Origin: Sipunculus nudus
Taxonomy: Eukaryota; Annelida; Sipuncula; Golfingiida; Sipunculidae
Direction: 5' to 3'
DNA length: 64,000 bases
Assembly (NCBI GenBank): GCA_026874595.1
Contig: CM049306.1
Location: forward strand, 9,170,519-9,234,518
Positions within the stretch are counted from its first letter, which is position 1, and each line of letters begins with the position of its first letter. Shown piece after piece: positions 23,800-52,440 of the stretch. The position numbers and the translations under genes were made by a program. Under the pieces are notes generated by a model, which did no database searches, was not told the DNA's origin, and saw only the letters and a program-made list of their open reading frames with translations.

Positions 23800-25480
23800 A
23801 CCTGTAATTTCAATTCAGATATGTAATCAGAGTATTTAAGCTTTAGTTAACACAGGTTCTCAGATTTCCCTGATTGGTGAGGAATTTTTCAGGACACATT
23901 TGCAACCAGTAATTCAGCAATTTCACAGTGCAACTGGTTAAAGTTGGCAAATAGGTTTTTTGTTCCATATGAAGGATTATTCCTCACTGATGTCACAGTT
24001 AGTAGAATTACAGTACCACAAGTAGGAGTTCTAATGGTAAAGGACATTCCAGGCACAGTGTAAAAGAGCTGAGGTTCCAGGGGTCTTAGGAACTAACATA
24101 CTACATCTACCTCAGTTTGCACCTTTACTGTGTACAGACGGGAAAGATACACACAATATTAGAGCTTTCCCCCAGTGCATGATTTACAAGGGTGACAGGA
24201 TGCAAATCACATGTCCTCCCGGCGGGCACAGTCACAAATGTCGTGATATATACGTGGTACTGGGCCTAGTCGCACTAGCTCAGCAAACAATTCAGGTGGT
24301 CAACACTTGGTTAAAAGACTTTAAATTAACACCAGAAACAAAGGTTGGAATGTGTCACATGGTGGAAATTGTGTAATGCAAAAAATAATAATAAAATATG
24401 CGTTGATTACCGGAAGATGAACACCAAAATCCGGAAAGATGCTTTTCCACTTCCCCGGATTGAATAGTCTTTGGATGCATGTCAAGGGCCAAATACTTTA
24501 CAACATTGGATTTGGCTTCGGCATATCATCAAATTGAAGTCGCCCCTGACGGCTGGAAGAAGACTGCATTCACAATTCCGATGGGCCTATATCAATATCG
24601 CAAGATGTTTTTCGGACTTTCTACAGCACCAGCCACTTTCCAACGGCTGATGAATAAGGTTTTCCGAGGGGATATTTTCCGTATTCTTTTAGTTTACCTT
24701 GACGACATTATCGTTTTCTCGAGCACAATTGAAGAACATCTGGAAAGGCTGGAGAAGGTTTTCAGTACTTTAGGTAAGCACAACCTCAAAGTTAAGGCAG
24801 AAAAGTGTGCTCTGTTTGGAGAAGATGTGACATACTTGGGCCATATCGTGTCAAGGAAAAGTATTCGTCCTGATCCTGGAAAGGTAGTCGCAGTGAAACA
24901 ATATGAAGTGCCAACCACTGTGCGTGAACTGAGAAGATTTTTGGATTTTCTCCAGCTATCGTCGCTTTGTCAAAAATTTTGCTAAAATAGCTGCTCCTTT
25001 GCATGAGTTAGTTGGATCCGTATCGAGAAAGAACAAGAAAGGTCATCAGAGAGACAACAATCAAGTGTTGCCCTATTGAGAAACTCGCCATGATCAGGCA
25101 TTTCAAGTCCTGAAGGACGAACTAATCGAGACCAATTCTGGCATATGCTGATTTTATCAAGTCTTTTAATCTGAAAACTGATGCGTTAAACAAGGGATTT
25201 GGGGCTGTGCTCAGCCAAAAGCAAGGTGGTGAAAAGCGTGTTATAGCATATTCAAGCCGAGGTTTGAGAGGTTATGAAAAGAACAAGGATTGATACAGTT
25301 CAAGACAATTAGAACGGTTGGCATGAATATTGGCAGTAGCAGATAAATTCAAAGAAATCTCATCGGAAGTTCATTTCTGGTACTTACTGCCAATAATTCA
25401 TTATGTAATTCGGCGTAGAAAATTACCAGTTGTGGAACTCCGATGGGTTGCAGCACTTTCACCTCTCAATATCCCTTCCT
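23800..25480 (+). pseudogene. Pol remnant: protease, reverse transcriptase, RNase H
   Basis: The protease motif at 23840-23880 reads ALVNTGSQISLIG, where the catalytic Asp of the D-T/S-G triad is Asn. Reverse transcriptase is the best-preserved part (24479-24950). It has TLDLASAYHQIEV, AFTIPMGLYQYRKMFFGL, the catalytic YLDDIIVFS and GHIVSRKSIRPDP. A frame change near 24945 leads on to NFAKIAAPLHELVG. RNase H follows with KTDALNKGFGAVLSQKQ and RVIAYSSRGL (25175-25270), interrupted by stops. The YxDD box with Ty3/gypsy-type flanking sequence identifies the family. Several stops and at least three frameshifts rule out a functional product. Confidence 0.9.
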
Positions 25481-25849
25481 AGTATCAATCAGGTAAAGAA
25501 AAATTTAAACGCAGATTTTCTGAGTCGTCAGAAACAGAGACCATGGGATATGACATGGATTCTGAGGAGGTAATAAGCCCATGTGCCATGGGTAGGCAGT
25601 ATACTAGTGTATCAGCTGAAGTTCAGATTAAAGCCTGTGAAACTGTGATCAGTCACACAGAAAGTAACTATATATCTGAGCAGGAAGAAAATGAGCTGGA
25701 AGTAACTACATTACCCATCATGGATTCAGCTGAAATGGTACAACTCCAGGATAAAGATATGGTGATAGGCCACATTATGCAGTTCTTGAAGGAAGGAGCG
25801 AAACCATCTTGTAGTTAGAGGAAAAAGGAATCAAAGGAAGTCCAATTTC

Positions 25850-27339
25850 TGTTGCGACAGAGGGTTCGTATTAAAGAGAAATTTCGAGAAATTGAGGACC
25901 CACAGAAAGGCAAACTGCAGCAGTTACTACTCCATTTGATATTAAAGGAACAAGAGTGTCATGATCACTATGGATACCAGGGCGCTGAAAGAACAGAGTT
26001 GCTCATCAGAGAGAAATTTTTCAGGCCAAAAATGCACCAAGGGACACTATGTAGAGCAGCGTGAGAAGTGTGTACTGAGTAAACCAGTAAAATACAAGTG
26101 TCAACTTGGAAGCCTTTTAGCCTCCAAACTCATTAGAGGTAGTTGCCATGGATTTCACTCAGTTTGAAAAATCTTCAGATAGGTACGAATATGTATTAGT
26201 CCTTACAGACATCTTTACCAAATATACAATCGCTATTACAACAAGAGCAATATGCAAACAGCACAACTGTGACAAGAGTTTTAGCCAATCACTGGTTTAG
26301 GAGGTTTTGCTCACCTCAAAGACTTTATTCAGACCAAGGACGGGACCTTGAAGCAAAGGTTACGAATGATTTATGTGACCTATATAGCGTCAAGAAAACT
26401 CGTACAACAGCATACAGGCCACAGGGGAATGCTCAGTGCGAGAGATTTAATAGAACTTTGCATAATTTATTCAGGTCGTTACCACCCGAAAAGAAAATGG
26501 ACAGAGTACATTGAAGAATTAGTATTCTCCTACAATACCACATTCCATGAGTCTACTGGATTCTCTCCATTCTTCCTGATGTATGGAAGGGAAGCTCACA
26601 CTTTCAACAGCCTTTACCAAGATGACTTTTTGAATCAATCAGCAACATCAACGGTAGAAAAGAATATATATGATTGGGTAGTGAAGCGTCAAGAAAAACT
26701 GAAAGATGTTTATCGAATAACACAACAACGACTTGAACAAAAGGCCAAGATACGCAAGGCATATTATGATCGAACTGCAAAAGACCATCATTTAGCAGTT
26801 GGCAAGGTAGTGTTTAAACGACACCATAGTAAGAAAGGAAAGAAGAAGTTCCAGGATGCATTTTACCCTCAACGATTCGCCATACTGTCTTGCAATTATA
26901 CAAAATATTTATTTAATTGAACCTTTGAATGGAAAGCAAAGTGGGTAAACAGAAGTGAACTGAAACTTTGCCTAGCTAATAAGCCTATTCAACAAGCACC
27001 AAGGACAGTTAAGGGCGAGTCAGGGTTCTCTGGAGCAATCCCTACTCAAGTAGTTCTGATCAGGAAGATTTACAGATCAACATCTATTACTCCTAAGGAC
27101 AATCTTTGAGGCAATCTGATGGAACAAACGATACAGACTTATCAACCAACAAATAGCGAGTAAACACCTGAGACAGAATCTTCAGGAACTGCCAGTGATG
27201 GTGTCACCGAACAACCTCAAACAGAACCACTGTAAGAACAAGAGCTAGCACACGCAGTAACCCTCATAAATTGCCAAGATCAGTGTTAGAGAGACTTGTA
27301 GCTAGCCAACTAAAACAGAAGAGAGAGATTACAGTTTAA
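25850..27339 (+). pseudogene. Pol remnant: integrase and C-terminal tail
   Basis: The HHCC region begins at about 25955 with HDHYGYQGAERTELL and CEKCVLSK; one expected His of the pattern is Tyr. The catalytic core follows: MDFTQFEKSSDRYEYV near 26146 (first Asp), SDQGRDLEAKV near 26330 (second Asp), and TAYRPQGNAQCERFNRTL near 26410 (Glu). The frame changes near 26505, then runs to 26920 through ELVFSYNTTFHESTGFSPF and a basic tail. Another shift gives WVNRSELKLCLAN. A last frame ends in a stop at about 27339 after LVASQLKQKREITV. The D-D-E residues are present but separated by stops and shifts. Confidence 0.88.
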
Positions 27340-33968: not shown

Positions 33969-34829
33969 TTAAACCTGTATTTCACGTGATCCTGACATTT
34001 GAGCTGTACGTGCTTGATTTTTCGCGGGTGCAGCGCGCTTGTGCACAAATAGATTGATGATTACTTTTCTGTAATTTTCATTAAAATATCCATAAAGAAT
34101 GGGGTTTGCCAGCGAACAAGCAAATACAATAGTCATTGCAGAGGTATAAATTGTGGATAAATAAATTATGTTGATTTGAGCTAATTTTATAATGTAAACA
34201 ACTGTAATTGGCACAGACGTGATGATGTATGTCACCACGTGGGCGGCAAATAATTTAGTCAGCTTCTGACGTCGTTGGTCACCTGACGCGCCTGCGCGAC
34301 AGGAAGTAGAAGTCGCCAGGCGCCATATTTTAACATAATTAAATATAACGATGATTAAGAGTACTGTGTGTAACAAAAGTAAAAATATGATAACATAAGT
34401 GCTCGTGTTGAATTTCTCTGGATGTTGGAATTCCTTTGTTTGTTTGCACACGGTATAATTAACCATTTGTTTGACGTCGTGCCATGCTGCATAAAATCCA
34501 ACCGGGAAACTCGGTAAGACCCATGACATAACAATAAAAACGACAACGTATCTCAGCTTCATCTGATATCCTGGCATACTCTCCACAATACGTCGACGTT
34601 GAAAACTAATACAGGCCATGGTCAGAACTGTCGGGAAACATGTTACTGTGGTAAAAAATGTAGTCAGTTGACATGTTACTTTACCAAACATCCATGATTT
34701 TTGTACTCTGACGGCGATTATCAGAGGCACGGTCAACAAGAAAGCGATGTCTGCGGTCAGCAGGTTGGCTATCAGACAGTCGGTAGCGGCCGGTCGGCCT
34801 TTGTTCTTCTTACACACAGCAACAAATAC
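33969..34829 (-). CDS. GPCR exon 3 (TM2 to C-terminus)
   Basis: 861 nt from CTGCAG|GTATTTGTT to a TAA at 33969-33971. Encodes the first intracellular loop, TM2-TM7 and the C-tail. The residue numbered as a start in simple frame searches is a GTG (Val) inside the exon. Confidence 0.95.
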   Translation of the reverse strand, partial: VFVAVCKKNKGRPAATDCLIANLLTADIAFLLTVPLIIAVRVQKSWMFGKVTCQLTTFFTTVTCFPTVLTMACISFQRRRIVESMPGYQMKLRYVVVFIVMSWVLPSFPVGFYAAWHDVKQMVNYTVCKQTKEFQHPEKFNTSTYVIIFLLLLHTVLLIIVIFNYVKIWRLATSTSCRAGASGDQRRQKLTKLFAAHVVTYIITSVPITVVYIIKLAQINIIYLSTIYTSAMTIVFACSLANPILYGYFNENYRKVIINLFVHKRAAPAKNQARTAQMSGSREIQV

Positions 34830-43572: not shown

Positions 43573-43752
43573 TTATTGTCCTATACGGTGTCGCCTCCTG
43601 TAGGCCTGTAAGATCTTCACTGTTTGCCTAGCCTGGTTTTGCAGCCGCCATGAAGTTACCACGTTACGGAGTGTCCATTCCAGCTCATTCATGCCTTCAA
43701 AATCTTCACTTGGGGCTTCGTTTCTTGTTGAGATCGGTTCGAGCTCCTGCAC
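43573..43752 (-). CDS. Cytokine-like gene exon 6 (helix D, stop)
   Basis: Begins after CTGCGTAG with VQELEPISTRNEAPSEDFEG, then a ~35-residue amphipathic helix and YRRRHRIGQ, with tandem stops TAA TGA at 43570-43575. An alternative in-frame acceptor (GTGCAG|GAG) would drop two residues. Confidence 0.75.
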   Translation of the reverse strand: MQELEPISTRNEAPSEDFEGMNELEWTLRNVVTSWRLQNQARQTVKILQAYRRRHRIGQ

Positions 43753-46700
43753 CTACGCAGAGTGTTCAGAAATATGTTATTTAATAATTTAATATTTTAA
43801 TATATAAACCTCAATAAACATACAAATGTACTGTACTTCGACTTCACAGTGTGTAAAAGTCCAGAGTCCATAGTCGTATATACCTTCCACGGCAGTCGGC
43901 TCAGAAGATACGCAGGGGCGCCAAATATATTCATTTGTGTCATTGGTAATATTATCCACCAACACGCATATACATATCTATGTATTACACTTATTTTCAT
44001 CTTCACACAAAAGACTGTTTTATAATATTGTATTATGTCCTTTTTTAGCAGTTCCAACCTTACATTAAAATTGACATTGAAAAATATTCTTCAATTACGT
44101 GCTCAATTTGAATAAATTAAAGTACCATGCGGTGGCACAACCGTCGTACATTTGCCCCTTGTATGATGTGCCCGACCCCGCTTTCCTGTACATGTTTTCG
44201 GCCTACGTGATTCATTAACAGTGGTTCTTTTAATATTTAGCTCTGTAGCTTGACGACCATTTTACATATATTGAATTAAACACAAATTAAATAAAAAAAT
44301 GTTGTTGAGAGGTTTTAGAATATTCATCACAAGCGTTTCTAGTTAATCAACCAATTTGTTACTTTTGTAGCAATTTTGAATTAAGTTTTAAATAGATCTT
44401 TAGACTTACAGCTGTATAGTTTTAGGCCAATTGAATTAATTCTGTTCTATTTCATTTAAATTTTGTTTTAATTAATTTTTTTTACACAGTAAACCACCTA
44501 TTAACGGGAATTATGGCGGGCGCTAAAGAGTTGGACTCTACTAAAGATAACTATTAAAATTTTATATGATTATACTCTGGATTCAAATATTGAATATATA
44601 ATATGTTTCAATAGGCCCAGCTCGTCGTCTGTCTGTCTTCTACTGACGATACTCGAGGTGCTAATATAAGCCACGGAGGGATTTGCGAGTAAGCAAAAGG
44701 AATTTAAAGCGAGGTCAATAGTCTACCAGCAGCCAATTTAGCTCCATAAGTACTGGCCTGATGTGAGCTCGCCGCGAGGTGCGTGTGATAAACAAAGCGG
44801 CACAGTTCTGGAGGCCCAGGAATCTGCTTACCTGAGCCTGGTTGATGATATACAGAAGCATCTATAGTAGGGCTGACAGGTTTGCGGGCGAGGTTTCATG
44901 TGTTCGTGCAACAACTGAAGATTCGCATGGAAGTTTTATATATTTTCGCAACTTTTTTTGTAAAAGGTGTATTCGAAATGTTAACTGGGAAAAGCGTTTT
45001 TTTTTTTTTTTTTTTTTTTTTTGCGAATCGCAACCGGATGCACCCTGTTGCATGTTTTTAGAAAACAACACTAAATGTGATATATAGTTACATTATATAC
45101 ATCCTTATGGCGTGCAAAAGAAAAAATGTTCCTTCGAAACTTCCAGTTGGGGATAGGGGGAAAATTATTTTATTTAGTAAAATTCGAGATAGGATATGGG
45201 ATTTTTTTAACATTTAAACATTTATAAGCTGAAGTTCATACATCTACATAAAAATATCAATATCTATAATTCATAACAACGATTAGTCAGACATGGAGAG
45301 TTCAATCTGGTGAGCTTTTCATGAGCAGACAGGTAAATGAAGAAATTATCAAATAACATTATAAGAGGCGCAGCAAAGAATCCTAAAGAAAAACTTAAAG
45401 GTTTGTTCCATAATTTATTTGGGGTCTGACAGGGTTTTCATTTCACAAAATTCCTACGTACTCATCAGCCAGAACCAATACATAAGTTCAGGTGTCTTTT
45501 GTGTTCAGTTGAACAAATAAATATTCCGTAATTTGTTTCGGGTTACGAAAGAATAATTTTTAAGGTACGAGGTACGAATGATCGAGGTACGGATAAACGG
45601 GATACGGAAGAAAGTGACCTGTCTCATTCTCCACACGCGAGATCTTGTCTATGAAGAGGATAAACGACACTCAATGTGCGCACAGCACTCTCCAGTCGAA
45701 CGCGAGCTTTATCGCCTTGCATTGAAAAATTACATTAATTAAGGAAAATAGCAAATACAGAGTATGCTTCGACAACATCCATTCAAAATATAACCAATAA
45801 AGAGCATTTGTCCGTGAAACATATTTTGTATATTGACAAACCTGCGGATATATTTTTGGTGTCATATCTGTGACGCGGTATTGTAAATATAACAGAAACT
45901 TGTGCACGTGCTTCCATCGATAGTTTATGTGATACAGCTGCTGCCAGAGTTGTTGAGGATGTAAACGCACGATGAACTTGCAGGGACATTTGTTATGCTT
46001 TTTTCTAACCTTATGCTACAGGATTACCGGCATGCATTAGGGGTTAACCATTATTGCATGCTGATATAAGACACGAGTCCCAAGGGATCGTGAGTCACAA
46101 GTTGTTAACATTTTACTGATCATCCAAGTGAGGCGCTTACTGGGTCAACTGTCAGGTCAAACATGCTTAAGTCCGTCACGGCTGGCAGGGAACTATCATC
46201 ATTACAATAGATCTTGACCCTGTTGGGAGGTTGCGACAGTCTGCATGACTTTCTTCTTTATCGTTTATCGTGTCAAAAACACCACTCTGTGGTGAGCTCT
46301 AGCGAGTAGGTGGGTTACTAACCTTGCCAAGGTTTAAAATGTTGTCGAGAATGAACAATATGGCGGCACCTCTCCTGTCTTCAAAGAGAGATGGGTAGTA
46401 TTCCTCCGGTTTCCTGGCTTCGACCTCTGAGAGCCAGACACGGCAACTGTTCAGGTGTCTCAGCAGCGAAATGATCTCAGCCTGGTGACGATAAAAATAA
46501 GCAGACAATACTTATGTTTCTGATGTGTTTAGGGGACAGTTCCTTACGTTTAAGTAAAAGAGAAGGGAAAAGATGGCTGTATTAGCGAGGTTTCAAAGTA
46601 CATAAGTTTTTACTTTTCTATTTTACACCAAGGTTGCAAACAAGTTTGACTCGAAATTTCCTCTATTAAAAAAAAAACTAAAAATGCTTCAAAGGGGCTT

Positions 46701-49700
46701 ATTCCGACATTTGACGTCTATAAACTAGATCCTCAACCCCTTTTATGAAAATAGGGTCAAGGAAACGCTACTCCCAACGCACATAGGCTGTTCTTTTTGT
46801 TTATATCCATGTGTACATAACATGTGGGGGCCCGCCAAAAATAATCCAAACACATTTGCATTCAATAAAGACATCAACCCGTTTGGAACAACAAATTTGT
46901 CAAAATAGCAGGTAAATCAGTATACTCTGGATTTTTTTATAACATTGGAGTTAAATGTATTCATGATTTATACGAACCAAATGGAGAATCTAAGAATTTT
47001 TCAGAAATATTTCACCCTGAAAATAAACTCTATAAAAAATACCTGATGTTCTGGTATTCTATACAACAAGCGGTACCAAAGGAATGGAAATTAGTTCTTA
47101 AATCAGAGAACATGAGTGATATCTACGTAAAAGACACTTTATTATTGAATAATCAAGTTCTAGACTTGAGAAAAGTCTATTACCGTAAGGTGTATAATAT
47201 GGTTATAAATGACTATACAAATGAGCCGGCTAATAGAATTAAACTAGAGGAAAGCTTACCTCAGGTATTTTTCTGGAAAGATGCAATTGTTTATATATAT
47301 AAAACCACTATGGATATGTTTTTGAGGCAATTTCAGTTTAGAATAATCCATAATATATTGTCTGTGAATGTAAAGCTATACATATGGAAAATAACTGATA
47401 CCAATATGTGTTCATATTGCAAAATTAGTTTTGCAAAGAAAGGTTTGTTATGAGTGAACTTTTAAGATTCCGCACATATGCAATCAAACACCTTTGGTAA
47501 CATGGTTTTTCGCTTTTGTCAACAGTTCCTTTTGAATAACAGATTGTAGATAAACAAACTATGACACAAAGACGCTATAAGATTTTTCCTGAAAAGAATT
47601 ACATAAAGCAGTTCATAAAATTACCCTACGCAGAGTAATGCAGAAATTACTTATAGAAGTCTATACATCGAGTAGCTTAAAAGCTGGCTTTGACATTCAC
47701 TCATGGATACTCTCAGTTGTGCTTTTGAAGATCTGGTCTTTAGCAAGTCCGATGTAAGCTAAATGTACTCAGAAACTGGACTTTCACTGCCAGTTAACCT
47801 AAGTGGCAGGGGATCTGGTGGCGCGGAATTTATCACGTGACCTACCTCTCCTGGCTCTGTGACGTTGATTGGTGGCGGCAGACATTCACCCACTTCCGGT
47901 TCCCCTTTGGCGTATTCAGTACACACGTTCCGGGGCGCTTCACATGCGTGTCCTGGTATAGGCGGGAGATCTGGACATGTGTCATTGCACTGAAAAAGGA
48001 CAGGCTTTATCACTTTACCAAGCTTTATCACTTAATGGACATTTTGTAAAGTTTATTGAAATTAAAAAGTTACACTTGTTTAGGATGCAGCACAGCACAG
48101 TGCGGGTACCATATATGGCGCACTATGTGACTGAGTCACAGCCAGTATACATGTACATTGTGTCACACCATCATACGTTTTTTAGGGGTACAAATTTGAC
48201 ACTTAGCATGGTTTCGTCTTAATTGTCACTTAATAGACAGACTATGGGATTTCCCCTCTAACCTCAACTCTATCACAAATAATAGCTGCTTGGAAAGACG
48301 AATCCAATGTAGAAAATATGAGATTTGTTTTTGTATAAGCTAGCAAGCTGCCCCCCCCCCCCCCCATCAATAAAAATGAAATTATGTCATGTTTTCCAAA
48401 TCTATAGTGTATCCAGATACATATACATGTATAAATATCATCAAGTATGTATATTTATATAAATACATATATTTTTATGTGGCAGCTTTACGCACCGACT
48501 AAATATAGAAACAGGGTGTTTTTACTAATCACATACAGTCACAATAAGATTGTATGTAATGTCTTAATCAAGTTTCCATTATCCGTGTCGTACTAGTCCC
48601 GCTCATGAAAAACCACGACAAGCTCCGAATGTAATAGTCCGTCATAAATCACACTAAACGTAATTACACTACACATAATATACATAACATAAACGCTATA
48701 ATACCCCAAAATATTTAAATCGAGGATACAAAACCATTCTATAATTTTTGAGAATTTAATTAAAAATTAATAGAGGTGTAGTTTTGAATTATTGAAAGAA
48801 TCAGGATTTTAACTGAAACAACAAGGGCTAATATAATATGAACGTTTTCTTTGATGTAAAGGAAACGGGACTTTTATCCGATAGTTTCATTTCTCGTTTC
48901 ACAAGGAAAGTTGTTAAAATATTGGACGAGGATTATAAAGATGTAAACCTGTATTGCCCATCATATTAATTTTTATGTTATCAAAGAATACCTTAACCAT
49001 CGCTCTGCACCGCAGTACGGTCCTGCTCCCTTTAAACACTTATTGTATCACCATATCACATAAAAAGAATAAGCAGAACCTCGTTCTTGATATGATAATA
49101 ATTTTATACAAAATATTTTTTTTACAATTGGAGAATAATCCTTTCATTGTAATCCTCAATACAAACAACTGTCCAACTCCGAAGAGCTGATAAAACATAA
49201 AATTGGACGGACCTGTCAATCAGGAGAATATGGCCTTTTAATCTTTCAAAGTCATCGATAAAAGGTCTATTTTTCTGAATCTGATTACTTGCGATGCATA
49301 TTTTAATTGAAGAATGATAAATTGACACAAATCATCAGATTCATTCCCAATAATTAAAACTAAATTCACCCGTTAAGGAGAGGCATGTTTTCCTAAAATG
49401 TCTCCTGCACAGAGAAATGCCCGCTAATGCACATGGAAGGTCCTTGTATGTTTCCCCGGGAGAGTTTGGTGTCAAAAACTATGGCCTTTTTACTAGTACA
49501 TGTATGTTGATTTTTTCCACTAATTGTTAAACGGGGATCTGTTGGCTTTGGTTTTATTTAAGTAAATTGATATAACTGATATACTTCCATACCCGCTTTG
49601 TTTTTCTTCCTACGCCATTGAACAAATAAATTAGCAAATAGATGACTGATCAGGAAAAAAATTACAACCAATTATGAAGAGCCCGTATCTGAGTATACTA

Positions 49701-52085
49701 TAATGTGACGGGGTCTGCCCTGACACGCGGATATCAAGGAGAGTAATCAACTTGAGTGGGGTCCCAATTAGCAATTCATTAACTCAGTATTTATTTCATC
49801 TCATTGTGGTTTTGTTTTTATTATGACAGTTTTTGCAATCCTCGCCATTTAATACATACCTACTTTGGTGCATGCAATAACAGAAACCTGCACCGCTGTC
49901 GTCTGCTAAACCAATGACAATTGCACATGTGCATATCTATGATATATGTAAAATTAATTGAAGTTCTAATACTTACATAATTCTCAAACACTGTATTTGT
50001 AACTTGCTGCAGTTCCTTTGCTTTGACGTACAGATGTGTTGTGTCAATTATATTCGGTCTACATAGGATCACGTGACATGACGTAGTCACAAGGGCACTG
50101 AAAAGATAAATCACCAAATCTGAAAAGATAAAAAAAAAATTAGATACAATAGAAATCTATGGCTCAATTTATATTTATATTTAAAAAAAGGTTCAACATC
50201 TTCACGCATGTTAATATAAGGATTCCCTGTCCCTAACATGTATTCAGTGTTCACAACTGACCGGTTATATGAGTAGATGAAAGTCATTCGAAAAAAGCTA
50301 TCTCGTGAAACCTGAGAATATATATATTTCATTGATATTTCATTGATATTAAATTGCATTTTGTAATTTTTTATAGGTAAAGGTTACAGCATGATTTCAA
50401 AAATTAATGTCCGACATTTGATAAATAGAACGTTAACAGTTCTGTGATTACCGCTGAAAGATCATATTTAAATTACATTTCAACAATGTTAAAAGCAAAA
50501 TAAATGTTACCAAATTTTAAAATATATCTGAAAAATAGTGATATACGACATGTAACTACAACGAGGCATTTTATAGTAGTAAATTCCCTTGCCTCTTAGC
50601 ATCTTCAGTTTATTTTCTGCAAATGTTTATCTGAAGCTGTAAAGCTAATACTTGAGGTTACAGGGTCGACAGAGGGTATTTATACAGGTTTGGGAGGATG
50701 TTGAAAGTGCTCATTTAAGAAGGGTTGTGGTTGATTTGAGGGATGAAAATAAAGAGAGGGGGTGACCAACTGGGGGCGGGGAATCCTTCGAGAGCTTTCT
50801 ATTTTTGTCTCAACATGGCCAAACTGTCGTGCAGGAAACGTCTCAAAGTCAGTCAGATAATTAATGCAACAGCGCTGCAGTTAATCGAGGTTACTAGGAA
50901 ATGAAACGAAATTTGTGTATATGACGTTAACCACTGCAGCTCTGAGGGTGTAAAAAATGACATATAAGACCAGGAAAACCAGGCAGATACTTCAAATACT
51001 AATCGTGTTAAACTCATATCATTGTTTTCCGTTTTAATCAATGTATCCTCATTAATATGCAAATATATTTGTAAATATGGGTGCAATTGAGTACGCCCAG
51101 AATATCTAACATCTAACATTTCATCACTAACAAAAACACAACAACTGGAAGTTTTAGGTTGGTTTTGTGTATTTCGTTTTTAATAACCTGAGCATGATTT
51201 ATGTGCTCACTAATATAAAACCGAGTCATATAATTAAGATATCAACGGGGACATATCGTAAATATTTCCACTTGGTATAAAACCAGAAAGATGCATTCCT
51301 AGCATCCTATTTTTGTTTTGTTTATGAAAATGAGAGAAATTTATCTTTCCTGGAGGGCAAATAATCATATTATATCTATATATATCTTACTTTAAACAAT
51401 AAAAGCATAAAAGAATATCGCAAATGAAACGTTATAGGAGCTTTATGGTAATTAGTTATTGGATGAAGAAGTTAAACGGGATAAGATTTTTTTAATTAAT
51501 ATTTTGTAAGATCATGAGTTGTTTGAATGATATAAAGGGATCCTAACAATTTCATCTAAATTAAAATTTATCAGACAAATATTCAGATAGTCAAAAGTAA
51601 CCAGAATAAATTTAAACATACCAGAAATCTGAATGTAAGCCTTCGCAATGAGGAGCTCTGTATTATGGGATGCACCCAAAACCCTGTCAGGAAATTTTCA
51701 AAGCTTTTCGGGAATGGACCAATGCAGAATCAATTAAATGTTGGTGGTGATCCGGAAGATGATCCGCATTAAGGAACTTCACCAAGGAATATTCGTAAAT
51801 ATACAGTCACATATGCACGAATGAACTTGGGAATATGGCCCGATAGTGAATGCAAACACGGTTTGGGGAGCATCCCGAAATACGGACCCCCACATGGCGG
51901 AGGCTTGCATTCCTTAGAATCAGATTTCTAGTTTGTGTTTGTTAAAGGTTAATAATTGAGTGAACGCCACTCAGAAGCCCCATCTAGTTATTTACCTTCC
52001 CTAGCTTGAAGATGAAGTTCACCATGGTAAGGTTAACCATTTCCGACTAATTAAAAAAAAAGTTAAACATACCATTTAACTTCAT
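43573..52085 (-). CDS. Predicted secreted four-helix cytokine-like protein, six exons, 257 aa
   Basis: I assembled exons 52073-52085, 49977-50119, 47846-47989, 46323-46481, 45842-45976 and 43573-43752; all joins keep one frame (774 nt with stop). Signal peptide: MKLND then LVIYLFSALVTTSC. Exon 2 then gives a helix (THLYVKAKELQQVTNTVFEN). Exon 3 is a Cys/Pro-rich loop with glycosylation sites NDT and NVT. Exon 4 has helices around EIISLLRHLNSCRVWLSEV and GAAILFILDNILNL. Exon 5 gives LWQQLYHINYRWKHVHKFLL. Exon 6 gives TLRNVVTSWRLQNQARQTVK and a basic end. Intron phases are 1-0-0-0-0. Vertebrate IL6 and CSF3 also have a phase 1 intron in the signal peptide and phase 0 introns after it, with similar size and helix order. 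No receptor-contact motif such as FxxK is seen at the start of the last helix. The fold assignment is inference; another secreted helical protein is possible. The exon 5 call is the weakest. Confidence 0.62.
44998..45022. repeat. Poly-T tract
   Basis: About 25 consecutive T within intron 5 of the cytokine-like gene. Confidence 0.95.
45842..45976 (-). CDS. Cytokine-like gene exon 5 (helix C candidate)
   Basis: 135 nt, open, phase 0 at both ends, between CCTGCAAG and CAG|GTTTGT. The polypyrimidine tract is weak and the donor is non-optimal. Encodes an aromatic-rich amphipathic helix and a short loop, TDMTPKIYPQ. If skipped, exons 4 and 6 still join in frame and give a 212-residue protein. Confidence 0.55.
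46323..46481 (-). CDS. Cytokine-like gene exon 4 (helix B region)
   Basis: 159 nt between GTCACCAG and AAG|GTTAGT, phase 0 at both ends. Two helix-forming stretches flank an acidic/aromatic linker, KPEEYYPSLFEDRR. Confidence 0.78.
46826..47453 (+). pseudogene. LINE reverse transcriptase C-terminal fragment
   Basis: The open frame at 47046-47453 has the tail typical of non-LTR retrotransposon ORF2. It shows SIQQAVPKEWK, then PQVFFWKDAI, RQFQFRIIHNILSVNVKLY and a Cys-pair end (TNMCSYCK). About 200 bp upstream continue the same protein in other frames (KDINPFGTTN; YEPNGESKNFSEIF). It is a dead 5'-truncated copy, opposite in strand to the host gene, in the intron between exons 4 and 3 of the cytokine-like gene. 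Confidence 0.82.
47846..47989 (-). CDS. Cytokine-like gene exon 3 (Cys/Pro-rich loop)
   Basis: 144 nt between CTTTTTCAG and GAG|GTAGGT, phase 0 at both ends. Starts CNDTCPDLPPIPGHACEA and includes five Cys, many Pro and two N-glycosylation sequons, as expected for an exposed disulfide-linked loop. Confidence 0.8.
49977..50119 (-). CDS. Cytokine-like gene exon 2 (signal core, helix A)
   Basis: Acceptor is a T-run plus ATCTTTTCAG; donor is TAT|GTAAGT, phase 0. Encodes the hydrophobic signal core, CRPN, then a predicted amphipathic helix ending VFENY. A second CAG 22 bp further in is a weaker alternative acceptor. Confidence 0.75.
51650..51931 (+). repeat. Dispersed repeat, copy 3 of 3, ends in CTAG
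   Basis: Shares the ordered landmarks of copies 1 and 2 and ends 'cagatttctag' followed by TT. A small hairpin (ATTC-ctta-GAAT) precedes CTAG. The end resembles a Helitron/HINE 3' end. In intron 1 of the cytokine-like gene. Confidence 0.68.
52073..52085 (-). CDS. Cytokine-like gene exon 1 (start codon)
   Basis: ATGAAGTTAAATG|GTATGT: 13 coding bases and a consensus donor, phase 1. It was chosen because it supplies Met, a basic n-region (MKLN) and exactly the one base that exon 2 needs. The bases before ATG (cct) are a poor Kozak context. A different first exon remains possible. Confidence 0.5.

Positions 52086-52378: not shown

Positions 52379-52440
<62 letters not shown>
52200..52440. repeat. 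GGTTCTTT-rich repeat and (TA)n array
   Basis: Repeated short motifs GGTTCTTT, GGGTTCTT and GGAACTC, partly inverted (GAACC), run into a (TA)n tract at 52380-52436. Probably a small MITE-like or satellite-like element. It lies within 120 bp of the predicted start of the cytokine-like gene. Confidence 0.5.

What the first reader, a model, noticed from the sequence alone, without database searches (positions are those of the whole stretch)
43573..52085. Candidate molluscan long-chain helical (IL-6/CNTF-type) cytokine gene
Six small minus-strand exons join in one frame with consensus or near-consensus splice sites. They encode a 257-residue secreted protein with a signal peptide, four or five predicted amphipathic helices, a Cys/Pro-rich glycosylated AB-type loop and a basic last helix. 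Seen directly: open exons, GT-AG borders, phases 1-0-0-0-0, hydrophobic leader. Known: IL6 and CSF3 genes have a phase 1 intron in the leader and phase 0 introns between helix exons. Inferred: a class I cytokine fold. Invertebrate receptors of the gp130/Domeless type are known, but clear four-helix ligands outside arthropod Upd are scarce, so a protostome member would matter.
Basis: partly seen in the sequence, partly recalled or inferred. Interest (0 to 1): 0.9.

Follow-up and report, generated by a model that had tools for sequence, protein, structure and literature searches.

The report
Candidate animal helical cytokine gene
This looks like a real gene for a small secreted, helix-rich protein whose exon plan resembles that of vertebrate hormones such as erythropoietin; if it is one of them, it is a candidate for a signalling molecule whose receptor is known in many animals but whose natural partner is not.

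Summary
The core observation holds, with corrections. Four minus-strand exons (50119-49977, 47989-47846, 46481-46323, 43752-43573) join in one frame through GT-AG borders. They encode a hydrophobic leader and likely helix A, a Cys/Pro-rich loop, two helices, and a loop plus a 41-residue helix. Exons as good as the middle two occur once in 265,354 strand-bases of comparable DNA, against two in this 8.6 kb. AlphaFold2 on single exons gives two helices for exon 4 and one long helix for exon 5. Without it, phases are 1-0-0-0, as recalled for EPO, GH and IL6. The 13-nt first exon is plausible but unproven. No sequence relative was found in Pfam, PDB, viral contigs or elsewhere in the 1.43-Gb genome, and alignment to five human cytokines is not convincing. 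The genome does encode a STAT and a CRLF3-like receptor with WSPWS. Best reading: a class I long-chain-type cytokine gene, nearer in layout to EPO/GH than to IL-6/CNTF (0.6). The whole fold was not predicted, the phylum not checked, and function is inferred.

The parts
52073..52085 (-).
   Evidence: Only ATG with a phase-1 donor of at least 2.5 in 12 kb upstream of E2, but such pairs occur 1.73 times per 10 kb-strand by chance; not inside the dispersed repeat upstream. Unproven.
49977..50119 (-). Exon 2: rest of the leader and likely helix A; entry phase 1, exit phase 0
   Evidence: Open frame, 85% pyrimidines before the acceptor, GTAAGT donor; one similar exon in 265,354 null strand-bases. 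Codon use and GC not distinct from chance.
47846..47989 (-). Exon 3: 48-residue loop with five Cys, ten Pro and two N-glycosylation sequons; phase 0-0
   Evidence: GC 0.562, reached by 0.09% of 150-nt windows.
46323..46481 (-). Exon 4: two helices (B and C in the cytokine reading); phase 0-0
   Evidence: AlphaFold2 on the exon alone: helices 2-22 and 36-49 with short turns between, mean pLDDT 80.8; best codon score of the exons.
45842..45976 (-).
   Evidence: Weak acceptor, lowest full codon score, common by chance; some points for it.
43573..43752 (-). Exon 5: loop and long helix with a basic end (D in the cytokine reading), stop codon
   Evidence: AlphaFold2 on the exon alone: loop 1-17, helix 18-58, mean pLDDT 80.6, 29 residues at 90 or more; helical periodicity above shuffles.
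50602..50684 (-). Alternative start: TATAAATA (50684-50677) and an ATG ending the stretch at 50602
   Evidence: Read by eye; only poor phase-1 donors follow and the phase-2 route gives a worse leader.

Best explanation
A real gene, of which no second copy was found, encodes a small secreted protein of about 190 mature residues with the layout of a class I long-chain helical cytokine: helix A, long A-B loop, helices B and C, long C-D loop, helix D. It most likely acts as a circulating cytokine or hormone that pairs class I receptors at the cell surface and so activates JAK-STAT signalling. Shown here: exons, borders, common frame, hydrophobic leader, helices predicted in exons 4 and 5, and STAT and CRLF3-like genes in the same genome. 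Inferred: expression, secretion, helix A, the bundle and its topology, the receptor, the signalling.
For: Exons joined in one frame with GT-AG borders; exon quality rare by chance; helices on exons 4 and 5 in the expected places; helix D periodicity; leader with a von Heijne score of 5.91 (recalled matrix); STAT exons and CRLF3-like exons with WSPWS. The five-exon, 1-0-0-0 layout with loop alone on exon 3, B and C on exon 4 and D on exon 5 matches EPO and GH as recalled; no call supplied those gene structures.
Against: No sequence relative in Pfam, PDB or viral contigs, and no second copy in the genome. Alignment to five human cytokines gives z 0.8 to 2.7, while reversed-sequence controls reach 2.4; profile comparison stays within 40 shuffles. 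At a fixed 100 degrees none of the helix segments A-D is more periodic than shuffles, while the exon 3 loop is (0.2% of shuffles). No hit over cut-off for the IL6R-binding domain. The nearest AATAAA lies 876 nt after the stop. Exon 1 is unproven. Helix A and the whole bundle were not folded.
Confidence: 0.6

Rival explanations
1. A real gene for a secreted helix-rich protein of another kind, for example a carrier, defence or matrix protein, whose helix order and intron phases resemble class I cytokines by chance.
For: No significant sequence or fold link to cytokines; phases 1-0-0-0 alone are not rare among genes (my estimate, no call).
Against: Helix positions relative to exon borders fit the recalled EPO/GH plan in exons 3, 4 and 5 together; the genome has a class I receptor-like gene.
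Confidence: 0.28
2. The open exons are a chance assembly or a dead gene.
For: Exon 2 codon use is not distinct from chance; no second copy or relative to test conservation; exon 1 unproven.
Against: 207 codons in four exons without a stop, with consistent phases; exons of this quality are rare in comparable DNA.
Confidence: 0.06
3. A class II helical cytokine (interferon/IL-10 kind), as has been reported in oyster under the name CgIFNLP.
For: CgIFNLP is described as an interferon-like cytokine of Crassostrea gigas (PMC8218723, start of abstract in a search listing).
Against: Fish type I interferon genes have four phase 0 introns (PMC4929537, passage), while the intron after the leader here enters exon 2 in phase 1; no Pfam match of any kind. 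CgIFNLP itself was not compared.
Confidence: 0.06
4. The reader's six-exon, 257-residue model is the true transcript, with an additional helix between C and D. This can hold together with the best explanation and is scored apart.
For: Frame kept and GT-AG borders; helix-like periodicity at 100 degrees and a donor and synonymous score slightly better than those of exon 2.
Against: Weak acceptor, lowest full codon score, 0.79 lookalikes per 10 kb-strand by chance.
Confidence: 0.12

Closest known systems
Erythropoietin (EPO) and thrombopoietin
   Same: Exon plan 13/143/144/159/180 nt here against 13/146/87/180/156 for human EPO (recalled); loop alone on exon 3 with CxxxC close to its start; B and C on exon 4; D on exon 5.
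   Different: No significant sequence similarity (EPO z 2.4, TPO z 0.8); longer A-B loop; no Cys in exon 5, so the EPO bridge to a C-terminal Cys (recalled) cannot form.
Growth hormone / prolactin
   Same: Five coding exons with phases 1-0-0-0 and the same helix-exon allocation (recalled).
   Different: GH z 2.0, its reversed control 2.4.
IL-6 / G-CSF / CNTF family
   Same: Long-chain helical layout; IL6 gene phases 1-0-0-0 (recalled).
   Different: Pfam IL6 profile has no match at this gene; IL6 z 2.7, reversed control 1.9; CSF3 z 1.9. CNTF was not compared.
Arthropod Upd ligands of Domeless
   Same: Secreted ligand of a gp130-like receptor in a protostome, UPD2 modelled as a four-helix bundle (PMC5385356 passages; PMC7378365 passages).
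   Different: Not compared by sequence apart from the Pfam scans, which returned no family.
Oyster interferon-like protein CgIFNLP
   Same: Described as a molluscan cytokine (PMC8218723, listing only).
   Different: Not compared; interferons belong to class II.

Membership tests
Class I long-chain helical cytokines | Secreted, with an N-terminal signal peptide | tested here: inconclusive
   The leader segment on exon 2 is hydrophobic and scores 5.91 by a recalled von Heijne matrix with three of four possible starts, but the exon with the start codon is unproven.
Class I long-chain helical cytokines | Four-helix bundle, up-up-down-down, with two long connections | tested here: inconclusive
   Exon 4 and exon 5 folded apart give two helices and one long helix. 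Helix A and the packing were not tested; the spliced protein was not folded.
Class I long-chain helical cytokines | Coding introns in phases 1-0-0-0, helices B and C on exon 4, D on exon 5 (recalled for EPO, GH, IL6) | tested here: inconclusive
   Three phase 0 introns and the helix placement agree; exon 2 entry is phase 1, but exon 1 is unproven and the comparison rests on recall.
Class I long-chain helical cytokines | Detectable sequence or profile relationship to a known member | tested here: not met
   No Pfam or PDB match; alignments and profile comparison not convincing. 8 of 10 pairs among the five human cytokines also score z below 2.5, so the test has little power.
Class I long-chain helical cytokines | Binds a class I receptor (WSXWS) and signals through JAK-STAT | not testable with these tools
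   A CRLF3-like gene with WSPWS and STAT exons are in the same genome; binding needs experiment.
IL-6 family (Pfam IL6, PF00489) | Match to the IL6 profile | tested here: not met
   Own-genome search: 3 matches, none over the cut-off and none at this gene.
Erythropoietin | Bridge between the N-terminal Cys and a C-terminal Cys (C7-C161, recalled) | tested here: not met
   Exon 5 has no Cys.
Class II helical cytokines (interferons) | Only phase 0 introns, as in fish type I interferons (PMC4929537) | tested here: not met
   Exon 2 is read with entry phase 1.

The most novel reading that the evidence does not exclude
Probability: 0.4. Interest if true: 0.92.

Novelty: new member of a known kind. 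Interest (0 to 1): 0.7.

Why it matters
PMC13203501 (passages) reports IL6R, JAK and STAT in molluscs and IL6 only in vertebrates. [quoted passage not shown] A candidate ligand in a genome that also encodes a CRLF3-like receptor makes both questions testable. If the shared exon-helix plan is inherited, it would date the class I cytokine gene to before the split of vertebrates from this lineage.

Tried and rejected
Second copies in the same genome: one search gave 8 matches, 4 of them this gene's own exons; the other 4 (E 1.5 to 6.1) were translated and judged to be noise by eye, as were 3 IL6-profile matches elsewhere. Viral contigs: 11 stretches matched a pattern, none encodes a relative. Foldseek of the exon 4 model: 3 matches, E 6.2 to 9.2, none a cytokine. 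PDB sequence search: 0 for the whole protein, 1 chance-level match each for exons 4 and 5 (E 0.97 and 0.71). Human cytokines: z against EPO 2.4, GH 2.0, CSF3 1.9, TPO 0.8, IL6 2.7; reversed controls 0.9, 2.4, 0.4, -0.3, 1.9; the native exon order ranked 1 of 24 for EPO, GH and CSF3, 3 for IL6, 11 for TPO. hhalign scores lay within 40 shuffles in 3 of 3 comparisons. Hydrophobic moment at 100 degrees: A, B, C and D not above shuffles, the exon 3 loop and the extra exon are; with a free angle of 85-120 degrees only D is, and 4 of 5 control helices from human cytokines are not either. IL6R-binding domain: 1 match of 10 scored, 20 bits, cut-off 24.3. JAK domain PF17887: 0 matches, and the control rang nowhere, so no conclusion. 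Alternative first exon at 50602: poor donors. Two planned searches met a busy machine and were not repeated: a kinase training set (PF00069) and a mollusc haemocyanin marker (PF14830). Ten paper searches listed no title or abstract start that reports a long-chain class I cytokine gene in a mollusc; the lists were capped, and the library lacks most subscription papers.

Full report
WHAT IS THERE. The window lies on a 110.9-Mb contig of a 1.43-Gb genome in 153 contigs; GPCR, STAT and CRLF3-like genes show that it is an animal's. On the minus strand four exons join in one frame: E2 50119-49977, E3 47989-47846, E4 46481-46323 and E5 43752-43573 with the stop.

IS IT MORE THAN CHANCE. I scanned 265,354 strand-bases of presumed noncoding DNA of the same genome: parts of the window away from the gene, and flanks of 30 GPCR loci. 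Phase 0-0 exons of at least 48 codons with donor score at least 4.0 and at least 60% pyrimidines occur once (0.038 per 10 kb-strand); the gene strand of this 8.6-kb stretch holds two, exactly E3 and E4. E2-like exons also occur once in that null, and E2 is the only one in the stretch. The thresholds were taken from the exons themselves, so these are not formal P values. A codon model from 30 GPCR ORFs (7,520 codons) was set against 15,538 overlapping stop-free 50-codon stretches. On synonymous use, the share that scores as well is 1.7% for E4, 11% for E5, 13% for E3, 26% for the extra exon and 30% for E2; on full codon score it is 7%, 18%, 13%, 84% and 44%. E3-E5 are GC-rich (0.494-0.562) against introns of 0.335-0.366; the extra exon has 0.415 and E2 0.378.

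The extra exon has 50% pyrimidines before its acceptor, the lowest full codon score, and its like occurs 0.79 times per 10 kb-strand by chance. In its favour, its donor and synonymous score slightly exceed those of E2 and its translation has helix-like periodicity. I judge it more likely unused. Exon 1 stays open: it is the only ATG with a phase-1 donor of at least 2.5 in 12 kb upstream of E2, but such pairs are common by chance, 1.73 per 10 kb-strand at donor 3.3 or more. A rival start with TATAAATA at 50684-50677 and an ATG at 50602 offers only poor phase-1 donors and a worse leader in phase 2. A dispersed repeat covers about 52301-52204, upstream of exon 1, and does not reach it. The nearest AATAAA is 876 nt after the stop.

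ANATOMY. E2 encodes a hydrophobic leader and a likely helix A. E3 is a 48-residue loop with five Cys, ten Pro and two sequons (read). AlphaFold2 on E4 alone, without relatives, gives helices at residues 2-22 and 36-49 with short turns between (mean pLDDT 80.8). On E5 alone it gives a loop of 17 residues and a helix at 18-58 (mean pLDDT 80.6). Helix D shows helical periodicity beyond shuffles; A, B and C do not, and neither do 4 of 5 helices from known cytokines used as controls. At a fixed 100 degrees none of A-D exceeds shuffles while the E3 loop does, which does not help the cytokine reading.

COMPARISON. No Pfam family matches the protein or its parts. The PDB gives no sequence match to the whole and one chance-level match each to exons 4 and 5. 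The IL6 profile has no match at this gene. Alignments to human EPO, GH, CSF3, TPO and IL6 give z of 2.4, 2.0, 1.9, 0.8 and 2.7, while reversed-sequence controls reach 2.4; hhalign stays within shuffles. Eight of ten pairs among the five human cytokines score z below 2.5, the exceptions being EPO/TPO and CSF3/IL6, so sequence cannot decide. The gene plan is the stronger argument, and it rests on recall: coding exons of EPO (13/146/87/180/156 nt), GH (10/161/120/165/198) and IL6 (19/191/114/147/168) have phases 1-0-0-0; here it is 13/143/144/159/180. As recalled for EPO, exon 3 begins at or next to a CxxxC, exon 4 holds B and C and ends just after C, exon 5 holds D. EPO's bridge to a C-terminal Cys is missing here, since E5 has no Cys. 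Fish type I interferons, the class II alternative, have four phase 0 introns (PMC4929537, passage).

SIGNALLING PARTS. The same genome has two STAT matches over the cut-off on C12 and four collinear matches to human CRLF3 on C2 (E 4e-6, 3e-5, 0.009 and 0.12), one of them with WSPWS; that it is the orthologue is inferred. The IL6R-binding domain has no hit over its cut-off, and the JAK domain search was uninformative. Papers: IL6R, JAK and STAT but no IL6 in molluscs (PMC13203501, passages); IL-12 type receptors traced to about the mollusc era (PMC12162339, passages); a gp130-like and a CRLF3-like receptor in sea squirt (PMC1963337, passages); no natural ligand known for CRLF3 (PMC8063046, passages; PMC6797617, passages), which is found in relatively few invertebrates (PMC6797617); insect CRLF3 is activated by Epo and Tpo but not by prolactin or GH (PMC12409108, passages).

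VERDICT. By my judgement a real gene for a secreted helix-rich protein is very likely (about 0.93). A class I long-chain cytokine type is the best single reading (0.6). IL-6/CNTF type specifically is not supported, and mollusc origin was not tested. The whole fold, a transcript, and relatives in other species are the missing evidence.

Noticed in passing
window 33969-34817 (-): Rhodopsin-type GPCR open frame (PF00001, E 9.6e-27) about 9 kb from the gene.
   Followed up: partly
window 24479-26920 (+): Reverse transcriptase fragment (RVT_1, E 1.2e-28) at 24479-24985 followed by an open frame at 26348-26920 that looks like a retroelement integrase by eye (no Pfam match).
   Followed up: partly
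window 47046-47453 (+): 135-codon open frame antisense in intron 3 that looks like the C-terminal part of a LINE by eye; no Pfam match.
   Followed up: partly
window 52301-52204: Dispersed repeat of about 98 nt, 85-90% identical at 39 other scored places of 258 first-look candidates, next to a TA run at about 52381-52440.
   Followed up: partly
L052-L055 (G000:C2:37404484-37412591): CRLF3-like gene in four collinear matches with WSPWS, a candidate receptor.
   Followed up: partly
L006 (G000:C3:70335388-70335534): Cys-rich exon-like stretch ending in a GTAAGT donor that matched the loop of exon 3 weakly (E 1.5); looks like another Cys-rich secreted protein.
   Followed up: no
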